64,000 nt of DNA from Gemmatirosa kalamazoonensis (lineage in GTDB: Bacteria > Gemmatimonadota > Gemmatimonadetes > Gemmatimonadales > Gemmatimonadaceae), in contig NZ_CP007128.1 in the NCBI RefSeq assembly GCF_000522985.1, positions 4,200,220 through 4,264,219 of the forward strand, given 5' to 3'. The position numbers and the translations under genes are program-made. The notes under the pieces were generated by a model. It ran no database searches, was not told the origin of the DNA, and saw only the letters and a program-made list of their open reading frames with translations. Positions 26,457 to 33,733 of this stretch are shown piece after piece; the stretch's first letter is position 1; each line of letters begins with the position of its first letter.

Positions 26457-29315
26457 CTACTTCGCGTCGACGGAGCGCGGGTCGGGCTTCACCGTGAACG
26501 TCTGGGTGTACGAGCGCCCGCCGACCGTGAGCCGCGCCGTGAACGCGCCGAACAGCGGTGCGCCGCCCCGCCCGAAGCCGCCGCCGCCCCCACCGCCACC
26601 ACCGCCACGGCCCACCGCGGCGGCGACGGGGTTCCACACCACGCGATGCATGCCCGCGGACGTGGCGAACGGCTCCGGCGCCGGCCGCCAGAGCGGCGAC
26701 GTGTTCGGGATGCCGCCCGCGCCCCCGCGGCCGCCCGCGCCGGGCGTCGGCGGCACGTTCGTGCCGTACGCGCGCACGACGGATCCGGTGGAGTCCACGA
26801 TCTCGAGCGTCACCGGAGCGGCGGCCGCTGCGCGGAGCCAGTAGTCGATCGCGACGCCGTTAGGCGGGTTCGCGGCCTGCGGCTCGTCCTTCTGCAGCGG
26901 CGTGCCGTTGTCGCTCGTCGCGACGTAGTTGATCGCGTCGCTCGGCTTGAACAGGAACGCATCGGCGGAGAGCAGCGCCGGATCGAACTGCCGCAGCGGC
27001 GCGATGTCGTCGATCACCCAGAAGCCGCGCCCGTGCGTCGCGACGATCAGGTCGTCCTCGTAGATCTCGAGGTCGCGCATCGACGTCGTGGGAAGGTTGA
27101 GCTGCAGCGGGAGCCACTGCTCGCCGTCGTCGAACGACACGAACAGCGCGCGCTCGGTGCCGCAGAACAGCAGCCCGCGACGTACCCGGTCCTCCTTCAC
27201 GGTGTGCACCCAGCCCTCGGCGGGGAGGCCGTTCGTGATGCGCTGCCACGTCTTGCCGCCGTCGCGCGTGCGGTAGACGTACGGCGCGAAGTCCTGCAGC
27301 TGGTGACGGTCGACGCTCGCGTACGCGGTGCCGGCGTCGAAGTGCGACGCGTCGATCATCGTCACGCGACTCCACGCGCTGACGGCCTTCGGCGTCACGT
27401 CCTGCCACGTCGCACCGTCGTCGGAGGTGACGTGGATCCGCCCGTCGTCGGTGCCGGCCCAGACGAGCGGCGCGCGCAGCGGGGACGGCGCGATGGTGTA
27501 CACGACGCCGCGCTTGCCGTTGCGGTCCACGTGCTTCGCCGCGGTCTCGTCGAGGTTCGGCGGCGGCGGACCCTCGGGACGGGTGAGATCGGGGCTGATG
27601 CGCGTCCACGACTTCGCGCCGTCGGTGGTCTTGAACACGAACTGGCTTCCGTAGTACAGCGCGTGCGGGTCCGCCTTCGAGAACACGAGCGGCTGCGTCC
27701 AGTCGGCGCGCATGGTCTCGTCGGCGCGCGGCGGCACGGTGCCGTTGATCGGCACGTTCTGCGCGAGATCGTAGCGACCGCCCATGCCGCCGAAGATGAT
27801 GCCGGGGTGCAGCGGGTCGCCGGCGGTGTAGCCGCTCTCGCCGCCGGCGCCGATCGGCTCCCAGTCGCGCGTGGAGATCTCGGCGAACTTGCCGCGCGAC
27901 CGCACGGCGACCGCGCCGCTGTCCTGCTGCGCGCCGGTGACCCAGTACGGGAAGCGGTAGTCGACCGACAGGTGGTAGAGCTGCGCGGTGGGCTGGTTCA
28001 GCCACGACGTCCACGTCACCTCGCGCGGATCGGCGGCGCGCGCCTGACGCGTGATGACGGCGCCCTGGTCGCTCGCCACGATCGCGGTGTTCGGATCGTC
28101 CGGCGACACCCAGAACTGGTGATAGTCGTCGCCGCCCGGCGAGCCGCGGAGCACCTGCCACGTGTGCCCACCGTCCATCGACCGGTTGACGGCGACGTTA
28201 GGCACGTAGACGGTGTCCGGATCTTTCGGGTCGACCGTCACCTTCTCGAAGTACCAGCCGCGTCCCCACAGCGCGGTGTCGCCGGAGAGCTTCGTCCACG
28301 TCGCGCCGGCGTCGTCGGAGCGGAAGAATCCGCCCTGGCCCGGCGGCTGCGGCGCGGCGCCCGGCGCGTTAGGCGCGGCGGGCGCCGACGCGTTCGGGTC
28401 GGGCACGAGGCAGTCGACGACCGCGTAGACGCGGCGCGGGTTCGTCGGCGACACGGCGATGCCGGTGCGGCCGATGCCCTGCGCCGGCAGCCCGTTCGTG
28501 AGCTGCGTCCACGTGCTGCCGCCATCGGTCGACTTGAAGATGCCGCCGCCCGGGCCGTTCGTCGGCGCGTACGTGTACCAGGGCGGGCGGCGCGTATTCC
28601 ACAGCCCCGCGTAGACGACCCGGGAGTCGGTGGGGTCGATCACCACCTCCACCGCGCCGACGTCGGGGCCCTTGTAGAGCACCTTCTCCCACGTGCGGCC
28701 GCCGTCGCGCGTGCGGAAGACACCGCGCGTGGGATTCGCCGCGTAGAGGTGCCCGATGGCGGCGACGAACGCGACGTTCGGGTCGCGCGGGTCGATCGCG
28801 ATCTTGCCGATGTGCTGCGTGTCGTCGAGGCCGAGGTGCGTCCACGTGCGGCCCGCGTCGGTCGACTTGTAGACGCCGTTGCCGTAGCCGGCCGAGTCGC
28901 GGAGCGTGGACTCGCCGGTGCCGACGTAGACGACGTCGGGCGCCGACGGCGCGACGGCGAGCGCGCCGATCGACGGGACGGGCTGATCGTCGAACACGGG
29001 GTCCCACGTGCGGCCGCCGTCGACGGTCTTCCAGACGCCGCCGTTGACGTGCCCGAAGTAGAACTCGTGCGGTCGCCCCGGCACTCCGCTCACGGCGTCG
29101 ACGCGGCCGCCGCGGAACGGCCCGAGCATCCGCCACCGGAGCCCGCCGTAGAGCCGCGCGAGCTCCGCCGCGGTCGGGGGCGCGTCGGGCGCCGAGTGCG
29201 AGCCGAGCGCGCGGGTGACCCGCGGCCCGAGGAGCGAGAGCGCGGCACCGAGCTGGCCGGCGCGCAGCACGAAGTCGCGGCGGGAGACGCCGGGAAGGTC
29301 CGGGGGCGTGGTCAT
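26457..29315 (-). CDS. Tat-exported Asp-box (BNR/VPS10-like) beta-propeller hydrolase
   Basis: 952-residue exported protein. The N-terminus has a twin-arginine signal (VSRRDFVLRAGQLGAALSLLG). The body is a pair of beta-propellers marked by about ten Asp-boxes: VDGGRTW, TDAGRTW, RDGGRTW, TDGGSTW, DDAGATW, MDGGHTW, TDGAKSW, DDGATW, RDGGKTW and FDDGEQW. This is the sortilin/VPS10-like glycosyl-hydrolase architecture widely annotated as glycosyl hydrolase, but no catalytic acid pair can be assigned by eye. The C-terminus (about 840-952) is a Gly-rich segment and a beta domain (RLTVGGRSYTQTFTVKPDPR). Three Pro-Asn pairs are encoded by the CCTAAC octamer. Substrate unknown. Confidence 0.88.
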   Translation of the reverse strand: MTTPPDLPGVSRRDFVLRAGQLGAALSLLGPRVTRALGSHSAPDAPPTAAELARLYGGLRWRMLGPFRGGRVDAVSGVPGRPHEFYFGHVNGGVWKTVDGGRTWDPVFDDQPVPSIGALAVAPSAPDVVYVGTGESTLRDSAGYGNGVYKSTDAGRTWTHLGLDDTQHIGKIAIDPRDPNVAFVAAIGHLYAANPTRGVFRTRDGGRTWEKVLYKGPDVGAVEVVIDPTDSRVVYAGLWNTRRPPWYTYAPTNGPGGGIFKSTDGGSTWTQLTNGLPAQGIGRTGIAVSPTNPRRVYAVVDCLVPDPNASAPAAPNAPGAAPQPPGQGGFFRSDDAGATWTKLSGDTALWGRGWYFEKVTVDPKDPDTVYVPNVAVNRSMDGGHTWQVLRGSPGGDDYHQFWVSPDDPNTAIVASDQGAVITRQARAADPREVTWTSWLNQPTAQLYHLSVDYRFPYWVTGAQQDSGAVAVRSRGKFAEISTRDWEPIGAGGESGYTAGDPLHPGIIFGGMGGRYDLAQNVPINGTVPPRADETMRADWTQPLVFSKADPHALYYGSQFVFKTTDGAKSWTRISPDLTRPEGPPPPNLDETAAKHVDRNGKRGVVYTIAPSPLRAPLVWAGTDDGRIHVTSDDGATWQDVTPKAVSAWSRVTMIDASHFDAGTAYASVDRHQLQDFAPYVYRTRDGGKTWQRITNGLPAEGWVHTVKEDRVRRGLLFCGTERALFVSFDDGEQWLPLQLNLPTTSMRDLEIYEDDLIVATHGRGFWVIDDIAPLRQFDPALLSADAFLFKPSDAINYVATSDNGTPLQKDEPQAANPPNGVAIDYWLRAAAAAPVTLEIVDSTGSVVRAYGTNVPPTPGAGGRGGAGGIPNTSPLWRPAPEPFATSAGMHRVVWNPVAAAVGRGGGGGGGGGGFGRGGAPLFGAFTARLTVGGRSYTQTFTVKPDPRSVDAK

Positions 29316-29498: not shown

Positions 29499-30389
29499 AT
29501 GGGCTCCCACGTGCTCCCCCCCGCGTCCGTTCAGGCCGTGCGCTCCACCGAGCCGCTGCGCCAGAAGATCGAGGCGATCGAGGCGCGCTCGCGGCCGAAG
29601 GCGCTCGCCGTCGCGATGCGCGACCTCGGCACGGGGCTGACGTTCGACCACCACGCGGACCGGTGGTTCCACGCCGCGAGCACCATCAAGGTCGGCATCC
29701 TGCTCGGCGTGTACGGCGCGATCCACGAGGGGCGGCTCGTCGCGCAGTCGCGCGTACACGTGCGCAATCGCTTCAGCAGCGCGTGGGACGGGAGCCCGTT
29801 TCGCGTGGCGAGCGAGCGCGACGCGAACTCGGAGGTGCATCAGCACATCGGGTCGACGATGCGCGTGAGCGAGCTCGCGCTGCACATGATCGCGACGAGC
29901 AGCAATCTCGCGACCAACCTGCTGCTCGACCTCGTGGGGCTCGACACGGTGCAGCGCTGCCTGGAGTCGCTGCACATCCACGGCGTCGACGTGCGGCGCG
30001 GCGTGGAGGACGAGCGCGCGTTCGAGCATCACGTCAACAACCGCGTCACGGCCGACGGCCTCGCCGCGCTGCTGCGCGCGATCGCGGAGGAGCGCGCATT
30101 CTCGCCGGAGATCTCGCGGCAGATGGTGGACGTGCTGCACGCGCAGGAGTTCAAGAGCGGCATTCCGGCGCGGCTGCCGAAGGCCGTGCGCGTCGCCCAC
30201 AAGACGGGAGAGATCTCGACGGTCGCGCACGACGCCGGGATCGTCTATCCGCCCGACTGTCCGCCGTACGTGCTCGTCGTGCTCACGGAGTGGGAGCCGG
30301 ACGGCACGGGGCGCTCGGCGACGATCGCCGAGGTCTCGCGCGCGATCTACGAGTTCCTCCACGCCGACGGGGGGGCCGCGCGTGCCTGA
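29499..30389 (+). CDS. Class A beta-lactamase-fold serine hydrolase without signal peptide
   Basis: 296-residue penicillin-binding/beta-lactamase-fold hydrolase. The nucleophile motif SxxK is S61TIK64; the SDN-equivalent is S134SN136; EHHVN (Glu176, Asn180) matches the Glu166-x3-Asn170 spacing of the omega loop; and K235TG237 matches KTG. So all class A active-site elements are recognisable. There is no signal peptide: the N-terminus (MGSHVLPPASVQAV) is hydrophilic, so it is predicted cytoplasmic, unlike a resistance enzyme. ATG 29499 is the first ATG after the divergent hydrolase. Its 3' end overlaps the M15-like gene by 8 bp, making it the first gene of a compact operon. Substrate is probably a peptide or amide rather than a drug (inference). 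Confidence 0.85.
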   Translation: MGSHVLPPASVQAVRSTEPLRQKIEAIEARSRPKALAVAMRDLGTGLTFDHHADRWFHAASTIKVGILLGVYGAIHEGRLVAQSRVHVRNRFSSAWDGSPFRVASERDANSEVHQHIGSTMRVSELALHMIATSSNLATNLLLDLVGLDTVQRCLESLHIHGVDVRRGVEDERAFEHHVNNRVTADGLAALLRAIAEERAFSPEISRQMVDVLHAQEFKSGIPARLPKAVRVAHKTGEISTVAHDAGIVYPPDCPPYVLVVLTEWEPDGTGRSATIAEVSRAIYEFLHADGGAARA

Positions 30390-31017
30390 CACGTCGACGC
30401 GGTTCGCGCTGCGCGTCGTCGACGGGCGGCGGCTGGAAGCGCCGATGCGCGAGGCGCTGCATCCCGGCGGACTGTTGTGCGACCGCGAGGGGCGCGCGCG
30501 GAGGCTGCCGCGCTACTTCTATGAAGTGACGTCGTGGGCGGAGGCGCGCGAGACGCCGCTGTCGCCGCACTTCTATCTCTGGGAGTTCATTCACACCGAC
30601 GTGCGCGAGGCGCCGGCACTGCTCGCGTTCCCGCGCTACGTGCCGTGCGCGCTGCCGCTGCTCGCCGCGGCGCTCGAGCAGTTCCGCGACGCGGTGGGCA
30701 CGTACGTGCACATCTCCGCGAACGGCGGCTATCGCTCGCCGCGCCACGGGCTGACGTGCAACGCGTCGACGCACGCGTGGGGCACGGCGGTCAACATCTA
30801 TCGCATCGGCGACACGTGGCTCGACACGCGCGAGGCGATCGAGCGGTACGCGAGCGTGGCGCGCGACACCATTCCCGGCGTGTACACGCGCCCCTACGGC
30901 CACGGCACGGAGGAGACGGACGACCATCTGCATCTCGACCTCGGCTACGTCGTGTCGGTGCCGCGCGACGTGCCGGGCGATACGTACAACCCGAAGCTCG
31001 ACGACGATCCTCTGTAG
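30382..31017 (+). CDS. M15-like (Peptidase_M15_3) D,D-peptidase-family protein
   Basis: 211-residue cytoplasmic protein resembling the M15_3/DUF882 murein peptidases: SPHFYLWEFIHTD, LLAAALEQFRDAVG, ISANGGYRSPRHG, the zinc block STHAWGTAVNI and the terminal DDHLHLDLG. In the usual SxHxxGxAxD zinc motif the Asp is replaced by Asn here, so metal binding may be altered or lost. There is no signal peptide, which is unusual for a wall peptidase. GTG 30382 overlaps the preceding gene by 8 bp and the amidoligase-like gene starts 12 bp after its stop. I infer action on a soluble peptide in the same pathway as its neighbours. Confidence 0.75.
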   Translation: MPDTSTRFALRVVDGRRLEAPMREALHPGGLLCDREGRARRLPRYFYEVTSWAEARETPLSPHFYLWEFIHTDVREAPALLAFPRYVPCALPLLAAALEQFRDAVGTYVHISANGGYRSPRHGLTCNASTHAWGTAVNIYRIGDTWLDTREAIERYASVARDTIPGVYTRPYGHGTEETDDHLHLDLGYVVSVPRDVPGDTYNPKLDDDPL

Positions 31018-31029
31018 CCCCGCAGGCCC

Positions 31030-32325
31030 ATGGATGCCGTAGCCAAGAAGCAGCAGCGCCGCGAGCGCGCCACCGCGCGCCGGCAGCTCGGCCAGCGCGC
31101 CGCGATCGGACTGGAGGCCGAGTTCGCGGTGATGCTGGACGGCGAGCAGGTCAAGCCGGAAGACGTGTTCGGCAGCCCGCGCGCGATCGTGCGCGGCCCG
31201 TTGATGCACCGCGTCGGGCGCTCGTATCACCTGCCCACGGGTGGCGCCGTGTACTTCGACACCGGCGTGGTGGAGATCGCGACGCCGATGATCGAGCTCG
31301 CGCCGGGATGCGCCGCGCGCGCCGGCCGCTCGCTGTGGGAGAGCATCCGCTTCCTGCGCGAGGAGCTCGACGACTGGGAGCGGCGCGACGGCCGGTCGGT
31401 GCAGCTCGCCGGGTTCAGCGCGCACTACAACGTGTCGTTCGACGTGCCCGCGGAGGAGCAGCGCGCGGGCCGCACCGTGCACGACCTCGCGGTGCTGCTG
31501 ACGTACCTGCTTCCCTTCCCCGTGATGCTGCTCGCGGCGAATCGCGAGAGCACGGGCATCGGCGTGCGACCGCGCGGCAACCGCATCGAGATCACCGCCG
31601 ACTTCACGCCCGACCCCGCCCTCATGATCGCCGCCGCGACGCTGATCGTGGGCGTGGTGCGCGAGGTGATGACGTGGCCGAGCTACGAGCTGCGCGAGCT
31701 CGATGCGCGGGACGTTCCGGTGCCGGGCCAGTTCGCGCCGATCCCGCACAGCTCACGGAAAGGCTGGGTGGCGAAGTACACGTGCTTCCCGGCGAACCCG
31801 TTCCAGTCGGACGTCGACGTACCGCTGTGGGACACGCGCCGCGGCGAGCGACTGTCGCTGCGCGAGATCGCGGGACGCACGACGCGCTACTTCTCCCGCA
31901 GCATCCGGCAGTTCGCGGACCCCGTGTCGCTGCGACTGATCGGATCCGTGATGCGCGGCCGCGCGCCGTCGCTGCTGGAGCTCGCGGAGCGCCCCGCCGC
32001 GTACTGCGACGTCGGGCGGCTGTGCACGTGGGGCGACCTGTTCCCCGAGCACATGCTGCCGCGCTCGGAGTACGAGCAGGTGCTGCTGTACGCGGTGCAG
32101 CGGCAGCCGTTGTGGGTGGACGACGACTGGGCGGAGCCGACGGGCGTGCGCGGCTGGACGCAGGTCGTCTTCCGCCGGCGCGGCGACGGGAGCCGACGCG
32201 TGTACTCGCTCGACGACCTGCTCGCGTACCTGCGCGACTGGGGCACGGGACGCGGCGCGCGGGCCGGGCGCACGCGCCGGCGCACGGTGCCGTCGCGCGC
32301 GGCGGCGCGGCGCGCGGCGCGTTAG
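31030..32325 (+). CDS. Glutamine-synthetase-fold carboxylate-amine ligase-like (amidoligase-like) protein
   Basis: 431-residue protein that I place tentatively in the GCS2/amidoligase group of ATP-dependent carboxylate-amine ligases. The opening AAIGLEAEFAVMLDG is like the ExE metal motif, VYFDTGVVEIATPMIEL like the second ligand strand, GFSAHYNVSFD like the His/Asn strand, and GNRIEITADFTPDPALMIAAATLIVG like the Arg/Glu strand before the helical part of the fold. No signal peptide; the C-terminus is very basic (RTRRRTVPSRAAARRAAR). It is the last gene of the tight operon with the serine hydrolase and M15-like gene. The stop codon TAG lies in a CGTTAGGC copy. Substrate unknown; family call moderate. 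Confidence 0.55.
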   Translation: MDAVAKKQQRRERATARRQLGQRAAIGLEAEFAVMLDGEQVKPEDVFGSPRAIVRGPLMHRVGRSYHLPTGGAVYFDTGVVEIATPMIELAPGCAARAGRSLWESIRFLREELDDWERRDGRSVQLAGFSAHYNVSFDVPAEEQRAGRTVHDLAVLLTYLLPFPVMLLAANRESTGIGVRPRGNRIEITADFTPDPALMIAAATLIVGVVREVMTWPSYELRELDARDVPVPGQFAPIPHSSRKGWVAKYTCFPANPFQSDVDVPLWDTRRGERLSLREIAGRTTRYFSRSIRQFADPVSLRLIGSVMRGRAPSLLELAERPAAYCDVGRLCTWGDLFPEHMLPRSEYEQVLLYAVQRQPLWVDDDWAEPTGVRGWTQVVFRRRGDGSRRVYSLDDLLAYLRDWGTGRGARAGRTRRRTVPSRAAARRAAR

Positions 32326-32986: not shown

Positions 32987-33733
32987 ATGAAGACCGCACA
33001 ACAGTGGGTGGCGGACCTGGGCACGAGCAAGGCCCAGGCGTTCCCGAACATCAAGCGCGCCGACGTCGTGAACGGCTTGAACGACCGCCTCGCGAAGCCG
33101 AGCCTGATCAACCAGTCCAACACGAGCCTCTGCGGCGCGGCGTCGCTGATGTACACGTTGGCGCGGCTGAAGCCGGAGGTCTACGCGCAATACGTGACGG
33201 AGCTCTACACGACGGGGGAGGCCAAGCTCGGCACGCACTCCGTGAAGCCGGGCCCCGACTGCAAGCGGTACGCGGCGACCACGACGAGCGGGATTCACCC
33301 AGCGGACTGGGTGGCCCTGGCCAGCCTGCGCGACTCGGAGAACGACACCTTCAAGTACGACAGCCCGAGCGCGGAGGTCGGCGGCATCACGATGCCGGGA
33401 GATCTGCTGGACTGGTTCAAATACGCAGGGTTCAGCAAGGACTCGAACGTCACCAACCTCGTGTGGACGAAGGACGAGTCGGATCTGAAGACCGCGGGCT
33501 CGAAGTTCAGCCTGAGCCAGACCGTCTGCCTGTTCATCAACGCGAACCTGCTGCAGCACCCCGACAACGGCTCCACGTTCCCCGACCACTGGGTGGTGCT
33601 CGAGTCGCCGGTGAGCATCACGAAGGGCAACGTGGACCTCACCGTCTACACCTGGGGCGGCACGCAACAGGTCAGTCTGCCGGTGAGCAAGTTCTGCACG
33701 AACTTCTACGGCTTCATCGCCTGCTCGCCGTGA
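32987..33733 (+). CDS. Papain-like (C39-type) cysteine-enzyme-like protein
   Basis: 248-residue protein without signal peptide or membrane segment. INQSNTSLCGAASLMYTLA places a candidate nucleophile Cys49 at a helix start after a Gln/Asn, and PDHWVVLE places His201 at a strand start, the order and surroundings of papain/C39-fold cysteine peptidases. A Trp-Gly-Gly turn (VYTWGG) follows. Long soluble loops between them (HSVKPGPDCKRYAATTTSG) have no family I recognise. ATG 32987 follows CTCCGGAGCG. Composition is less Arg/Ala-rich than neighbours, and similar domains occur in polymorphic toxins and effectors, so an effector role is possible. Convergent with the TonB receptor gene, 10 bp apart. 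Confidence 0.65.
   Translation: MKTAQQWVADLGTSKAQAFPNIKRADVVNGLNDRLAKPSLINQSNTSLCGAASLMYTLARLKPEVYAQYVTELYTTGEAKLGTHSVKPGPDCKRYAATTTSGIHPADWVALASLRDSENDTFKYDSPSAEVGGITMPGDLLDWFKYAGFSKDSNVTNLVWTKDESDLKTAGSKFSLSQTVCLFINANLLQHPDNGSTFPDHWVVLESPVSITKGNVDLTVYTWGGTQQVSLPVSKFCTNFYGFIACSP

What the first reader, a model, noticed from the sequence alone, without database searches (positions are those of the whole stretch)
29499..32325. Compact operon of beta-lactamase-fold hydrolase, M15-like peptidase and amidoligase-like enzyme
Seen: 8-bp overlap, then 12-bp gap; all three proteins lack signal peptides. The first keeps S61xxK64, S134xN136, Glu176/Asn180 and K235TG. The second has M15_3-type zinc motifs. 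The third has GCS2/glutamine-synthetase-like metal strands. Known: amidoligases of this fold are predicted to make amide-linked peptides and often neighbour peptidases. Inference: a cytoplasmic pathway that builds and trims an unusual peptide or amide, or recycles a peptidoglycan-like conjugate. I know of no description of this three-gene set.
Basis: partly seen in the sequence, partly recalled or inferred. Interest (0 to 1): 0.7.

Follow-up and report, generated by a model that had tools for sequence, protein, structure and literature searches.

The report
Conserved muropeptide-linked peptidase–ligase operon
Three genes that always travel together in soil bacteria of five phyla encode two enzymes resembling cell-wall peptide cutters and one resembling the ligase that attaches the bacterial protein tag Pup, and their company suggests that they help recycle cell-wall peptides inside the cell.

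Summary
The operon is real. The beta-lactamase-fold serine hydrolase (29499-30389), M15-like protein (30382-31017) and ligase (31030-32325) overlap by 8 bp, then lie 12 bp apart. The order is the same in 29 of 30 Gemmatimonadota loci. It is also the same in 78 of 80 loci from a second collection, spanning Gemmatimonadota, Ramlibacter/Caenimonas, Acidobacteria, Verrucomicrobia and Rhodothermaceae; every exception lies at a contig end. No fourth gene is universal.

The third protein is a glutamine-synthetase-fold carboxylate-amine ligase, but not of Pfam Amidoligase_2 or GCS2. Its AlphaFold model is closest to Dop (Z 21.0) and PafA (18.3), including their C-terminal domain, and it keeps the PafA/Dop catalytic-Asp loop. 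The window genome has no Pup and no PF03136 match.

New evidence ties the trio to murein recycling. The ligase Mpl lies beside it in 14 of 38 Gemmatimonadota loci, in two arrangements. Forty of 46 trio genomes carry Mpl against 29 of 344 others; by genus it is 18/18 against 15/120. Verrucomicrobia place a gamma-glutamyl-hydrolase-type peptidase (12/16) and a POT peptide transporter (10/16) beside it.

Best reading: a cytoplasmic murein-peptide salvage module. The ligase's substrate and direction are unproven. I found no description of the set.

The parts
29499..30389 (+). Protein 1 (296 aa): class-A-beta-lactamase-fold serine hydrolase, no signal peptide seen
   Evidence: PF13354 E 1.2e-49; best PDB match 4ewf E 2.2e-24; S61, K64, S134, N136, K235, G237 invariant
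29679..29690 (+). STIK motif (S61xxK64)
   Evidence: invariant in the sequences read
29898..29906 (+). SSN motif (S134xN136)
   Evidence: invariant
30201..30209 (+). KTG motif (K235-G237)
   Evidence: K and G invariant, T 91/93
30382..31017 (+). Protein 2 (211 aa): M15/hedgehog-fold zinc-peptidase-like protein, GTG start inside gene 1 (8-bp overlap)
   Evidence: PF08291 sub-threshold, 18.2 of 23.2 bits; AlphaFold pLDDT 88.5; Zn DD-peptidase 1lbu Z 10.0, hedgehogs Z about 7
30772..30795 (+). HAWGTAVN: first metal motif, HxxGxAx[N/D]
   Evidence: H131 99/99; position 138 N in 85, D in 14
30919..30939 (+). DDHLHLD: second metal motif (D181xxH184)
   Evidence: D181 98/99, H184 96/99, D186 97/99
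31030..32325 (+). Protein 3 (431 aa): GS-fold carboxylate-amine ligase, PafA/Dop-like
   Evidence: AlphaFold pLDDT 84.6; Dop 5lrt Z 21.0 over model 23-411, PafA 4bjr Z 18.3, YbdK Z 17.5-18.0 only to 333; hhalign to PafA/Dop better than to GCS2
31108..31125 (+). GLEAEF: core strand 1 GhExE ATP/Mg motif (E29, E31)
   Evidence: G27 99/99, E29 and E31 98/99
31228..31296 (+). HLPTGGAVYFDTGVVEIATPMIE: catalytic-Asp loop (D77), counterpart of PafA [22 protein letters not shown]
   Evidence: D77 99/99; PafA/Dop sequences; this region carries the hhalign match

Best explanation
A cytoplasmic module that processes and salvages murein (peptidoglycan) stem peptides. Proposed steps: stem peptides released from imported turnover products are trimmed at D-amino-acid bonds by the serine hydrolase (D,D-peptidase-like) and the M15-fold metalloprotein (D,D- or L,D-peptidase-like). 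The PafA/Dop-like enzyme uses ATP to phosphorylate a side-chain carboxylate, most plausibly the gamma-carboxylate of the D-Glu residue, and makes (less likely removes) an amide there. The product then feeds Mpl, which joins the tripeptide to UDP-MurNAc, alongside the L,D-carboxypeptidase LdcA. Shown: the conserved operon, the folds, intact ligase and serine-hydrolase motifs, adjacency to Mpl, and co-occurrence with Mpl and an S66 family. Inferred: cytoplasmic location, catalytic activity of each protein, the murein substrate, and the ligase's direction. The ligase direction is favoured because the enzyme lacks the Dop-loop.
For: Trio order fixed in 29/30 and 78/80 loci, with gene trees that keep the same groups. 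TIGR01081 Mpl, scoring above cut-off in the three tested, sits beside the trio in 14 of 38 Gemmatimonadota loci, divergent upstream (37-69 bp) in one group and convergent downstream (6-3117 bp) in the others. Mpl in 40/46 trio genomes against 29/344 others, Fisher p 2e-29; by genus 18/18 against 15/120, p 6e-14. S66 (LdcA family) in 45/46 against 114/339. Mpl in 16 of 18 trio genomes of other phyla. Verrucomicrobia: C26 peptidase 9-53 bp upstream in 12/16, POT transporter in 10/16, DUF885 in 9/16. Fold and motif evidence. E-to-catalytic-Asp spacing is 48 here and in solved PafA against 86 in solved Dop and 92 in Verrucomicrobia sequences of the Dop type.
Against: Mpl is 410 kb away in the window's own genome and scores just under its cut-off (373.6 of 388.7). 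Six trio genomes show no Mpl; G143 and G176 are 99% complete. Mpl occurs without the trio in 29 genomes, so the trio is not needed for recycling. Co-occurrence is not corrected for phylogeny beyond the genus count, and no unrelated gene family was run as a control. LdcA is already present, so a trimming role for the M15 and serine proteins may be redundant. The usual Asn at the metal site makes the M15 protein's catalysis uncertain. Profile similarity of protein 3 to PafA/Dop is modest (hhalign E 1e-4, single pair).
Confidence: 0.5

Rival explanations
1. Biosynthesis of a small amide-linked metabolite: the ligase joins a glutamyl or aspartyl carboxylate to an amine, and the two hydrolases trim or activate the product, without a murein substrate.
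For: GS-fold ligase with all active-site motifs. Iyer et al. 2008 (PMC2588565) predicted metabolite synthesis for GS-fold ligases that neighbour a thiol peptidase or a gamma-glutamyl cyclotransferase. A C26 gamma-glutamyl-hydrolase-type gene stands beside the trio in Verrucomicrobia.
Against: No transporter, synthase or tailoring enzyme is conserved with the trio in Gemmatimonadota; the recurrent neighbour there is Mpl; POT and C26 are also at home in peptide salvage.
Confidence: 0.25
2. Peptide scavenging: the module degrades imported D-amino-acid or gamma-glutamyl peptides as food; the third protein works like Dop, as an ATP-primed amide hydrolase.
For: POT peptide transporter, DUF885 and C26 peptidase next to the trio in Verrucomicrobia; Dop is the closest solved structure.
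Against: Spacing before the catalytic Asp equals that of PafA and leaves no room for the Dop-loop; the association with Mpl points to reuse rather than breakdown.
Confidence: 0.13
3. A protein-tagging system in the manner of pupylation, with an unrecognised tag.
For: Closest folds are PafA and Dop, with the same catalytic-Asp loop and C-terminal domain.
Against: No Pup (PF05639) and no PF03136 match in the genome; no small conserved ORF or proteasome gene was seen to accompany the trio; true PafA and Dop occur separately in some trio-bearing Verrucomicrobia.
Confidence: 0.05
4. Antibiotic detoxification or self-resistance: a cytoplasmic beta-lactamase with accessory enzymes.
For: PF13354 with the class A signatures except the standard ExxLN.
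Against: No signal peptide, whereas beta-lactam targets are periplasmic; far below the curated class A cut-off (112 of 200 bits); strict coupling to a ligase and an M15 protein is not a resistance context.
Confidence: 0.04

Closest known systems
PafA / Dop (Pup ligase and depupylase, PF03136)
   Same: GS fold plus C-terminal domain (Dop Z 21.0, PafA Z 18.3); GhExE; Y-x-D catalytic loop; HxN; E-to-D spacing of 48 as in solved PafA
   Different: Below HMM detection for PF03136; no Pup, proteasome ATPase or second paralogue; coupled to two hydrolases; about 12% identity in structural alignment
GCS2 / YbdK carboxylate-amine ligases (PF04107) and Amidoligase_2 (PF12224)
   Same: Same superfamily and metal-site layout; YbdK and its Salmonella relative Z 17.5-18.0
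   Different: No HMM match; the YbdK match stops at residue 333; profile comparison to GCS2 at background level
Class A beta-lactamases and PF13354 relatives (4ewf, TLL2115)
   Same: SxxK, SxN, KTG; whole-domain match
   Different: No signal peptide; RGVED in place of the ExxLN omega loop; a conserved HVRNRF stretch with invariant N90
M15 / LAS peptidases (S. albus Zn DD-peptidase 1lbu, VanX/VanY, hedgehog)
   Same: Fold and first His / Asp-x-x-His metal motif
   Different: Metal Asp usually Asn; under the PF08291 cut-off; no signal peptide
Murein tripeptide recycling (Mpl, LdcA)
   Same: Recurrent neighbour and co-occurring partners
   Different: The trio is an extra module that is not part of the described pathway as I know it

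Membership tests
Carboxylate-amine ligase superfamily (GS fold) | GhExE on strand 1, acidic residues on strands 2-3, [HQ]x[NH] on strand 4, conserved Arg (as listed in PMC2588565) | tested here: met
   G27, E29, E31, D77, E82, H132, N134 and R185 at 98-99 of 99
PafA/Dop (Pup ligase family PF03136) | Overall fold including the C-terminal domain | tested here: met
   Dop Z 21.0, 341 aligned residues, model 23-411; PafA Z 18.3
PafA/Dop (Pup ligase family PF03136) | Catalytic Asp in the loop NG-x-R-x-Y-x-D | tested here: met
   TGGAVYFD77, 99/99; same place in PafA and Dop
PafA/Dop (Pup ligase family PF03136) | Match to the PF03136 profile | tested here: not met
   none at E up to 1; none in the whole genome; hence not filed as a member
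PafA/Dop (Pup ligase family PF03136) | Pup encoded nearby or in the genome | tested here: not met
   PF05639 absent; no conserved small ORF seen by the trio
GCS2 (PF04107) | Profile match | tested here: not met
   the single GCS2 match in the genome lies elsewhere
Amidoligase_2 (PF12224) | Profile match | tested here: not met
   at E up to 1; the genome search had no positive control and counts for nothing
PF13354 Beta-lactamase2 | Profile match and SxxK, SxN, KTG | tested here: met
   169.1 bits of 22; motifs conserved
True class A beta-lactamase (NF033103) | Curated score and Glu166 of ExxLN | tested here: not met
   112 of 200 bits; omega loop reads RGVED
Peptidase M15_3 (PF08291) | Gathering score | tested here: not met
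   18.2 of 23.2 bits
LAS/M15 fold | Fold with His, Asp, His metal ligands and an acidic base | tested here: inconclusive
   Fold met (1lbu Z 10.0); one ligand position Asn in 85/99 and Asp in 14/99
Murein recycling pathway | Genomic link to Mpl / LdcA | tested here: met
Murein recycling pathway | Activity on murein peptides | not testable with these tools
   needs biochemistry

The most novel reading that the evidence does not exclude
A PafA/Dop-like ligase has been recruited outside pupylation to build or reshape murein peptides, or to attach them to another molecule, using two D-peptidases as partners: an ATP-driven branch of cell-wall recycling that nobody has described, and possibly close to the ancestral chemistry from which pupylation arose.
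Probability: 0.3. Interest if true: 0.85.

Novelty: new variant of a known kind. Interest (0 to 1): 0.66.

Why it matters
Pupylation enzymes are usually viewed as a closed pair derived from glutathione-type ligases. A third lineage with the same fold and catalytic loop, coupled to D-peptidase-like proteins and linked to murein recycling in soil phyla, offers a testable non-tagging role for this fold and an unexplored branch of peptidoglycan recycling. It also warns annotators against calling the first gene a beta-lactamase or the third a glutamate-cysteine ligase.

Tried and rejected
phmmer and hmmsearch of proteins 2 and 3 (and of alignments A1, A2) against PDB sequences found nothing at E up to 10. 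Plasmid and phage collections: no match. Amidoligase_2 across 150 genomes: nothing, but no positive control rang. Global hhalign and separate C-terminal halves (E 0.055) gave no significant match, so the C-terminal domain rests on structure alone. A first hhalign hit between proteins 2 and 3 (E 5e-90) was an artefact, most likely of one contaminated row, L050, where a frame runs through both genes; it vanished when the alignments were cleaned. L050 is not claimed as a fusion because its M15 part lacks the second metal motif. Idea that the trio replaces LdcA: rejected, S66 is present in 45/46 trio genomes. Idea of a Pup-like small tag gene: none found. Pairing the trio with the downstream 248-aa protein: rejected, it is not conserved there. 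The 2009 amidoligase survey by Iyer and colleagues is not in the library, so I could not check whether it lists this trio.

Full report
What is there. Three same-strand genes lie at 29499-30389, 30382-31017 and 31030-32325. The second starts with GTG inside the end of the first (8-bp overlap) and the third follows after 12 bp. The window lies on a 5,311,527-base contig of a 7.48-Mb genome; from memory this is the size of the Gemmatirosa kalamazoonensis chromosome.

Is it more than chance? The third protein is found in 46 of 395 Gemmatimonadota genomes, in 18 of 138 genera, at 45-66% identity. Proteins 1 and 2 lie directly upstream in 29 of 30 of the loci fetched, all except one cut by a contig end. 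Overlaps of 1 to 11 bp between genes 1 and 2 are the rule. A scan of 84,980 species genomes gave 103 relatives and 80 loci. All three genes stand in the same order in 78 of these; the two exceptions lie at contig ends. The holders are Gemmatimonadota, Ramlibacter and Caenimonas, Acidobacteria, Verrucomicrobia (Chthoniobacter and Spartobacteria types), Rhodothermaceae/Rubrivirga and a MAG labelled Bacteroidetes. In quick trees of each gene the Ramlibacter rows form one fully supported group, as do the Verrucomicrobia rows. In the ligase tree the Ramlibacter group sits among Gemmatimonadota, which suggests transfer as a unit (quick method, not tested further). No fourth gene is universal.

Protein 1. 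PF13354 at E 1.2e-49; best solved relatives are 4ewf and TLL2115. S61, K64, S134, N136, K235 and G237 are invariant, so the serine-hydrolase site looks intact. It scores far under the curated class A beta-lactamase cut-off.

Protein 2. The profile match to M15_3 is below threshold, but the AlphaFold model (pLDDT 88.5) matches the Zn DD-peptidase 1lbu at Z 10.0 and hedgehogs, VanX and LdcB/VanY proteins at Z 5-7. H131, D181, H184 and D186 are kept; the position of the usual metal Asp is Asn in 85 and Asp in 14 of 99. Acidobacteria mostly have Asp, Ramlibacter always Asn. Activity is therefore plausible but open.

Protein 3. No Pfam or NCBIfam match (the one Pfam line, HTH_17 at E 0.74, is noise). 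The model (pLDDT 84.6) gives Foldseek best hits PafA and Dop (E 6e-9 and 5e-8), then YbdK and glutamine synthetases. VIA-align: Dop 21.0 over 341 residues (model 23-411), PafA 18.3, YbdK and its Salmonella relative 17.5-18.0 but only to residue 333, plant GCL 15.3, glutamine synthetases about 10. The stretch HLPTGGAVYFDTGVVEIATPMIE matches the catalytic-Asp loop of PafA, [22 protein letters not shown], and its Asp is invariant in 99 sequences. hhalign of the family against ten PF03136 proteins from Verrucomicrobia gives E 1.7e-4 (N-terminal part 1.1e-4) against 0.35-0.41 for GCS2 and 0.2 for unrelated controls. This is modest on its own but agrees with the structure. The query was a PafA stretch written from memory; only the solved sequences it retrieved are used as evidence. 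Spacing from the first Glu to the catalytic Asp is 48, as in solved PafA; Dop has 86, so there is no room for a Dop-loop. It works like a carboxylate-amine ligase by all visible motifs (criteria of PMC2588565), but fails the PF03136 profile and has no Pup, so it is called PafA/Dop-like and not a Pup ligase. Only one of 390 Gemmatimonadota genomes sampled has a PF03136 match.

What it does. In 14 of 38 Gemmatimonadota loci the neighbour is an Mpl-type ligase; the three tested score above the curated TIGR01081 cut-off. It lies divergently upstream in one group and convergently downstream in others, so the adjacency probably arose more than once. Mpl occurs in 40 of 46 trio genomes and 29 of 344 others (p 2e-29), and in all 18 trio genera against 15 of 120 others (p 6e-14). 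The LdcA family S66 occurs in 45 of 46 against 114 of 339. The samples differ by a few genomes (395, 390, 385), so G390, counted as lacking both, may not have been searched. Outside the phylum 16 of 18 trio genomes have Mpl, though Mpl is common in proteobacteria anyway. In Verrucomicrobia the trio is flanked by a C26 gamma-glutamyl-hydrolase-type peptidase (12/16), DUF885 (9/16) and a POT peptide transporter (10/16). Mpl links L-Ala-gamma-D-Glu-mDAP to UDP-MurNAc (family description). The common theme is murein or gamma-glutamyl peptides in the cytoplasm.

Mechanism, with steps marked. Shown: operon, folds, motifs, genomic links. Inferred: the two hydrolase-like proteins act on D-amino-acid bonds of stem peptides, and the ligase activates a carboxylate with ATP and forms an amide, most plausibly at D-Glu. 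The direction of the ligase and the exact product are guesses; rivals are given with their tests.

Novelty. Literature searches found pupylation and murein recycling papers but none describing this trio. The library is partial, and the most relevant amidoligase survey (2009) is not held, so novelty is provisional.

Noticed in passing
32987-33733 (+): 248-aa protein without a Pfam match; stretches NTSLCGAAS and DHWVVLE look like a papain-type Cys/His pair. Not conserved beside the trio elsewhere.
   Followed up: partly
L137 and L136 (genome G240, Gemmatimonadota): Two tandem divergent PF03136 proteins follow an AAA+ ATPase gene and precede an FtsZ/tubulin-like ORF with a twin-arginine-type N-terminus: an odd Pup-like locus, the only PF03136 match in 390 Gemmatimonadota genomes sampled.
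   Followed up: no
L131, L132, L134, L135 (genomes G397, G401): Verrucomicrobia that carry the trio also carry separate true PafA and Dop genes, the L131 one next to a proteasome-type ATPase.
   Followed up: partly
L050:7754-9193: In one draft genome one frame runs from the M15 gene into the ligase gene, with the M15 second metal motif lost and a later frameshift; decayed copy or assembly error.
   Followed up: partly
L038, L040, L042, L049, L022 (M15 C-termini): The M15 protein of one Gemmatimonadota family ends in an acidic tail such as DETETAGAGA or DVTETAEAGA, absent in the window's copy.
   Followed up: no
L108, L112, L114, L120: Acidobacterial ligases appear to carry an insert, as the query matches in two pieces, and some have a wider gap before the ligase gene.
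   Followed up: no
26457-29315 (-): 952-aa sortilin/VPS10-BNR repeat protein whose 5' end begins about 180 bp upstream of the trio, divergently.
   Followed up: no
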